From positions 142,893,001 to 142,957,000 of the forward strand of contig NC_084461.1 in assembly GCF_027409185.1 (NCBI RefSeq): a stretch of 64,000 nucleotides of DNA, written 5' to 3'. The notes beneath the pieces were generated by a model. That model was not told the DNA's origin, did not search any database, and saw nothing but the letters and a program-made list of their open reading frames with translations. Of the stretch, positions 46,600 to 46,977 are shown in pieces. The position numbers were made by a program, and so were the translations under genes. Numbering within the stretch: the stretch's first letter is position 1; each line of letters opens with the position of its first letter. Source of the stretch: Cynocephalus volans (Eukaryota > Chordata > Mammalia > Dermoptera > Cynocephalidae).

Positions 46600-46977
46600 A
46601 CTTATCCCAAGTCTCTATGGATACATGTCCATAGGTTATCTGTAAAGATTCCATATATTATTTTAAAGGGAACAGCTAAACAAAATGGCTCCAACAGAAA
46701 TACAAATAAATGGATTAAAAACTGGCTATCTAACCGTATACAGAGAGAAATCGTAATTGGTAGTCCGTCTAGTTGGGGAGAGGTTTCCAGTAGGGTCCCA
46801 CAAGGATCGATATTGGGTCCCATTTTGTTTAATATCTTTATAAAAAATCTGGAAGACAAAGTAGAGAATGTGCTAATTAAGTCGACTGATGCCACTAGAT
46901 TAGGACTGGGGGTTAAAGTAAATTGGGATATAGATAAATGCTACTGGTCTTTGGAGAGCATAAGGAAAGACCAGTGC
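46600..46977 (+). mobile_element. CR1/L3-type LINE reverse-transcriptase remnant, overlapping a GABRB2 exon in antisense
   Basis: An open frame of 126 codons without ATG runs between stops at 46597-46599 and 46978-46980. Its middle reads [12 protein letters not shown] (46711-46746), then G...SSW (46759-46776), [16 protein letters not shown] (46795-46842), [11 protein letters not shown] (46849-46881) and TDATRLG (46885-46905). In CR1-clade LINEs the same order and spacing is [46 protein letters not shown]. The alignment needs no gap over about 65 residues. The catalytic aspartates are lost, so it is a dead relic. It contains the whole GABRB2 cassette exon on the other strand. Confidence 0.8.
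46735..46848 (-). CDS. GABRB2: GABRB2 alternative cassette exon (38 residues, long isoform)
   Basis: 114 bp, phase 0 on both sides, encoding the 38-residue insert of the long beta-2 isoform. It begins [12 protein letters not shown], continues through [16 protein letters not shown] and ends YDFSLYT. I believe the peptide is the same as the human long-form insert. It lies in the M3-M4 cytoplasmic loop between DVNK and MDPHEN and adds S/T-P and RRTT sequences that could be kinase targets. Acceptor CTTTGTCTTCCAG is good; the donor ACG|GTTAGA is weak, as expected of a skippable exon. Skipping keeps the frame and yields the short isoform. The exon is antisense to a CR1-like reverse transcriptase relic. 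Confidence 0.95.

What the first reader, a model, noticed from the sequence alone, without database searches (positions are those of the whole stretch)
46600..46977. GABRB2 long-isoform cassette exon appears to be an exonised antisense CR1/L3 LINE reverse transcriptase
Seen: opposite the 114-bp exon there is a 126-codon open frame. It reads [43 protein letters not shown] and TDATRLG. Known: CR1-clade LINE reverse transcriptases carry [37 protein letters not shown].K and FADDTKLG with the same spacing. The match needs no gap over about 65 residues and continues past both exon borders, so it is not an effect of the exon's own coding constraint. Inference: a CR1/L3 LINE inserted in reverse orientation, and part of it became the 38-residue cytoplasmic-loop segment of a neurotransmitter receptor. 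I do not recall this origin being reported.
Basis: partly seen in the sequence, partly recalled or inferred. Interest (0 to 1): 0.92.

Follow-up and report, generated by a model that had tools for sequence, protein, structure and literature searches.

The report
LINE-derived exon in GABRB2 receptor gene

Summary
Window 46735-46848 (minus strand) is the 114-bp cassette exon of GABRB2; its 38 residues equal three of four beta-2 long-isoform sequences in the PDB and differ at 2 from the fourth. The opposite strand carries a decayed LINE reverse transcriptase: Pfam RVT_1 E=7.2e-6 (below Pfam's cut-off), 39 of 67 ungapped identities to a recalled avian CR1 sequence, and E=1.3e-7 with a profile of 13 pieces from 12 other LINE fossils of the same genome. 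The match runs past both exon borders. The origin is not new: Zhao et al. 2009 (PMC2741204) print that 85 bp upstream to 66 bp downstream of exon 10 is annotated as LINE3, and that the exon is found in mammals and lizard, not in chicken, frog or fishes. Details I did not see in print: exon codons are exact complements of RT codons; Thr365 lies opposite the Gly of the RT 'G..SSW' motif; the 3' splice site is antisense to the RT's 'DLDE'-type stretch, where 9 of 34 fossils carry AG and 17 of 34 CAA, while the donor GT is seen in 1 of 9. An instructive, largely known exonisation.

The parts
46735..46848 (-). GABRB2 cassette exon (exon 10 of the human gene, beta-2 long isoform), 114 bp, 38 codons, phase 0-0, peptide [38 protein letters not shown]
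   Evidence: Identical over 38 of 38 residues to PDB beta-2 chains 9crs_A, 9ctp_A and 9cxa_A; 36 of 38 to 8foi_B; splice borders read
46705..46905 (+). Decayed CR1-group (L3) LINE reverse transcriptase fragment, antisense to GABRB2, from WIKNWL to the former FADDT.LG region (catalytic Asp pair not kept)
   Evidence: Ungapped 67-residue match; RVT_1; profile of same-genome fossils
46669..46933 (.). Extent of the published LINE3 annotation (85 bp upstream to 66 bp downstream of exon 10), projected by me from human onto the window without allowing for indels (inference)
   Evidence: PMC2741204
46849..46872 (-). 3' splice site of the cassette exon: pyrimidine-rich tract ending CAG, the antisense of RT residues LEDKVENV
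   Evidence: homologous position in 34 fossils
46729..46734 (-). 5' splice site of the cassette exon (GTTAGA), antisense of RT residues SN
   Evidence: GT at the homologous place in 1 of 9 fossils
46759..46761 (-). Codon of Thr365 (mature numbering), exon residue 30 in RRTT; the opposite RT codon is the Gly of G..SSW
   Evidence: Chain 9crs_A numbering 336-373 for the exon; codon map; role of Thr365 from PMC2741204
51282..51416 (-). GABRB2 preceding exon (only this 3' coding part was tested), ends GATGTCAACAAG followed by GTAAAT
14216..14563 (-). GABRB2 last coding exon, MDPHEN... to the stop codon, 115 residues

Best explanation
A CR1-group LINE (annotated L3 in human) inserted in reverse orientation into the GABRB2 intron in an early amniote or mammal ancestor and decayed. 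A 114-bp piece of its reverse transcriptase palm region, read from the other strand, was recruited as an in-frame cassette exon of the receptor's cytoplasmic loop. The 3' splice site came almost ready made, because the RT's conserved Leu codon and the purine-rich Asp/Glu codons after it give a pyrimidine tract plus CAG or CAA in antisense; the donor GT probably arose by mutation. The exon adds a CaMKII-type site (Thr365) that, by published patch-clamp work, makes receptor currents run down faster when ATP is short. Shown here: the homology, its extent, the codon register, the splice-site counts and the near-identity of the peptide to PDB chains. Taken from print: the human LINE3 annotation, the species list and the Thr365 effect. 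Inferred: timing, order of steps, use of the exon in this species.
For: RVT_1 hit, 8.4e-6 for the core 46702-46905, 0.0013 for the exon alone. Recalled CR1 39/67 with no gap, 15/29 outside the exon. Same-genome fossil profile 5.5e-13, or 1.3e-7 without the loci fetched by the window's frame, shuffles far below. 122 matches to the CR1 segment elsewhere in the genome, so the family was resident. Published LINE3 annotation reaching past both exon borders, exon seen in mammals and lizard, Thr365 effect. Acceptor: AG in 9 of 34 fossils against a mean fraction of 0.061 at 66 other codon positions, and 17 of 34 CAA. Peptide 36/38 to 38/38 identical to four PDB sequences, which argues for purifying selection.
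Against: RVT_1 score is below Pfam's curated cut-off; the flanks on their own give no Pfam hit. No DNA-level relative was found in the genome: only the locus itself (a search that skips very common words), as expected for an old element but leaving the subfamily open. The CR1 comparison sequence is recalled and I had read the finding's motifs before typing it; the fossils of the profile were mostly found with it. Four of 66 other codon positions have an antisense AG fraction as high as the acceptor's, so that feature is not unique. Lizard presence rests on the paper's alignment, whose figure is not held.
Confidence: 0.95

Rival explanations
1. The exon is older than, or unrelated to, the LINE, and the RT-like frame opposite it is a chance effect of the exon's coding constraint.
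For: Part of the RT signal lies within the exon: the exon alone scores RVT_1 E=0.0013, and the two flanks alone give no Pfam hit.
Against: The match continues on both sides, 15 of 29 identical outside the exon; fossils L003 and L004 match across both exon borders, L005, L027 and L035 across one; best domain score of 80 shuffles 8.6 bits against 41.5.
Confidence: 0.02
2. The RT fragment is from another non-LTR clade (L2, RTE, L1) or is a bacterial-type RT, not CR1/L3.
For: Clade was not tested with a tree or Dfam; the only PDB match is a weak retron RT hit (E 0.21).
Against: Ungapped 58% identity to recalled CR1; published UCSC annotation is LINE3.
Confidence: 0.05
3. The LINE origin is right, but the long isoform has little function: inclusion is low and conservation reflects something else, such as a splicing control element.
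For: In human cortex beta2L mRNA was 0.03 of beta2S, and exon 10 was not detected in rat brain (PMC2741204).
Against: Peptide 36/38 to 38/38 identical to four PDB sequences; in the paper a Thr365Ala change brought the current run-down to the short form's level (64.3% against 64.0%, beta2L 77.3%).
Confidence: 0.2

Closest known systems
GABRB2 exon 10 / beta-2 long isoform (Zhao et al. 2009, PMC2741204)
   Same: This is that exon: 38 residues at the same place in the loop, LINE3 annotation around it, Thr365
   Different: The window is from another mammal (species not established); the passages I read name LINE3 but not the RT domain, the antisense codon register or the source of the splice sites
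Exonised transposable elements in general (Alu, MIR, LTR exons)
   Same: An intronic element becomes a cassette exon; that almost all Alu exons are alternatively spliced is in an abstract seen in a listing (PMC2562518); that antisense Alus give the polypyrimidine tract is recalled
   Different: The source is a coding stretch of a far older LINE, and the exon peptide is strongly conserved
CR1/L3 LINE reverse transcriptase
   Same: [26 protein letters not shown] in order and spacing of the recalled CR1 segment
   Different: Dead fossil: the catalytic Asp pair is lost, and the RT strand is not the strand of the gene

Membership tests
CR1/L3 LINE (fossil) | Reverse transcriptase domain homology | tested here: met
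   RVT_1 E=7.2e-6 though below the curated cut-off; same-genome LINE fossil profiles 5.5e-13 and 1.3e-7
CR1/L3 LINE (fossil) | Closest to the CR1/L3 clade among non-LTR elements | not tested
   No Dfam or labelled clade panel; recalled CR1 match 39/67; published LINE3 annotation
CR1/L3 LINE (functional) | Intact catalytic FADD motif | tested here: not met
   Reads STDATRLG against recalled FADDTKLG
TE-derived (exonised) cassette exon | Element similarity extends beyond both exon borders | tested here: met
TE-derived (exonised) cassette exon | Exon missing where the element is missing | not testable with these tools
   Reported: exon identified in mammals and lizard, not in chicken, frog, fishes (PMC2741204)
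GABRB2 beta-2 long-isoform exon | 38-residue in-frame insert after DVNK and before MDPHEN | tested here: met
GABRB2 beta-2 long-isoform exon | Inclusion in brain mRNA of this species | not testable with these tools
   No transcript data

The most novel reading that the evidence does not exclude
The conserved 'DLDE'-type stretch of CR1/L3 reverse transcriptases is, in antisense, a nearly ready-made 3' splice site (pyrimidine tract plus CAG or CAA), so antisense fossils of this family should have seeded other exons that start at exactly this point; GABRB2 would be one well-kept case of a recurrent route.
Probability: 0.3. Interest if true: 0.55.

Novelty: already known. Interest (0 to 1): 0.35.

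Why it matters
A regulated piece of a major inhibitory neurotransmitter receptor, studied in schizophrenia, comes from the back strand of an ancient mobile element. The origin sits in one sentence of a 2009 paper and deserves to be stated with the codon map. The splice-site result gives a testable reason why this stretch became an exon.

Tried and rejected
Viral-contig scans for LINE relatives gave no relative. A translation of the minus strand in the wrong frame gave no GABRB2 hit; the right frame was used. DNA search of the own genome found only the locus itself. Further LINE pieces around the exon: six-frame pieces of 45200-48400 against the fossils then fetched gave, outside the exon region and up to E 0.01, two weak matches (46190-46342 to L012 and 45292-45401 to L029, both E 0.003), which I treat as chance. 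In one search the next places in the window after the exon had E 0.093 or worse. PMC4810243 holds the words GABRB2 and exonization, but apart from each other (passages). Literature searches bearing on novelty: for which I saw listings with the starts of abstracts; the papers I opened are PMC2741204, PMC1866178, PMC6048160, PMC10550821 and PMC4810243. In what I saw, only PMC2741204 speaks of a LINE at this exon.

Full report
Observation. The gene is GABRB2 on the minus strand: the window's last coding exon (14216-14563) and part of an upstream exon (ending at 51282) match PDB beta-2 chains at E 9.9e-72 and 3.3e-23 (borders). The 38-codon cassette at 46735-46848 is identical over 38 of 38 residues to chains 9crs_A, 9ctp_A and 9cxa_A, and over 36 of 38 to 8foi_B; the two further hits up to E 10 are ribosomal proteins at 0.68 and 1.3. 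8FOI is a native-receptor entry of a study that used Mus musculus sequences (PMC10550821, passages). The organism of the 9c.. entries was not in the output; I recall human. The exon is framed by TTCCAG and GTTAGA. From these borders the distance between the two flanking exons is about 36.7 kb, in keeping with the >28 kb reported for marsupial and placental mammals.

RT homology. Pfam RVT_1 matches the frame at E=7.2e-6, residues 35-90, 26.3 bits, below the curated 29.6; the exon's 38 codons alone give 0.0013, the two flanks alone nothing, the core 46702-46905 8.4e-6. Against a recalled avian CR1 segment, itself RVT_1 at 1.1e-15, the match is 39 of 67 with no gap: 24 of 38 in the exon, 15 of 29 outside. 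Because I had read the finding's motifs before typing that segment, I sought evidence less tied to it. The own genome (2.81 Gb) holds other LINE RT fossils: three places besides the locus itself for the window frame, and 122 places for the CR1 segment, a lower bound as 150 of 6448 candidates were scored. Counting by eye in the table, 9 of 122 have no stop in the match, and none that spans 60 or more query residues exceeds 49% identity; the window's own place is not in that list, since part of it is withheld in the held genome. A profile from 16 pieces of 14 fossil loci finds the window place at E=5.5e-13 (43.4 bits for the sequence, 41.5 for the domain), next place 0.48; the best domain of 40 shuffled windows is 8.6 bits, of a second 40 7.8. 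With the loci first fetched by the window frame removed, 13 pieces of 12 loci are left and E is 1.3e-7 (26.1 bits), next place 0.036, best domain of 40 shuffles 7.3. These 12 loci were found with the recalled segment. Direct matches to L003 (46678-46896) and L004 cross both exon borders; L005, L027 and L035 (46744-46959) cross one. At DNA level the genome search shows only the locus itself.

Prior report. Zhao et al. 2009 (PMC2741204; [quoted passage not shown] that chicken expresses an unlike exon; that exon 10 was detected in monkey and mouse but not rat brain; and that Thr365 in the exon bears on the faster ATP-dependent current run-down (Thr365Ala 64.3%, beta2L 77.3%, beta2S 64.0%). A later paper calls the long form derived and the short form ancient (PMC6048160, passages). 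So the core claim is known. In the listings of searches, and in the five papers opened, I saw no other statement of a LINE at this exon, and none of the RT domain or the orientation. I did not read parts 3-5 of section 3 of PMC2741204 through, only passages found by words; the library holds open-licence papers only.

Anatomy and mechanism. The exon's codons stand exactly opposite the RT codons: the peptide is the complement of [38 protein letters not shown] plus the Asn after it as printed there. Exon residue 30 is Thr365 in the numbering of 9crs_A (336-373); it lies opposite the Gly of the RT G..SSW motif, and the Arg three residues before it lies opposite a Ser. The acceptor CAG is the complement of the Leu codon CTG in the RT's DLDE-type stretch (here NLED). 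I mapped this position in the fossils: 52 loci were searched, among them all 20 places that span the position and had no locus yet, and 34 gave a full stretch there. Nine of 34 have AG, 17 of 34 CAA, one base away; the mean AG fraction at 66 other codon positions is 0.061, but four of those 66 are as high or higher. Pyrimidine content of the 24 bases compared is 0.664 against 0.545 on average, with 7 of 66 positions as high or higher. The control counts alignment pieces, the test one piece per locus. The donor position could be read in nine fossils; one has GT. I infer that the acceptor was nearly ready made and that the donor needed mutation. The fossils are related copies, so these counts are not independent events.

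Verdict. Category: already known, with new detail on the RT register and the splice sites. Not settled: L3 against other CR1-group families, date of insertion, use of the exon in this species.

Noticed in passing
46345-46416: A 38-bp 5' head of a SINE (46362-46399) flanked by perfect 17-bp direct repeats (46345-46361, 46400-46416): a SINE insertion without its 3' tail, about 336 bp from the exon. The SINE head in a form partly recalled has 2802 exact copies in the genome, control 0. I recall similar heads from bat SINEs and a class called tailless retropseudogenes.
   Followed up: partly
61755-62025: Tandem array of a 140-bp unit, 1.9 copies, 86% matches.
   Followed up: no
46190-46342: Weak protein-level match (29% over 51 residues, E 0.003) to the flank of LINE fossil locus L012, just beyond the exon region; probably chance.
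   Followed up: no
L003-L035 and L038-L057, places: The genome keeps at least 122 CR1-type RT fossils; by eye 9 of 122 have no stop within the match.
   Followed up: partly
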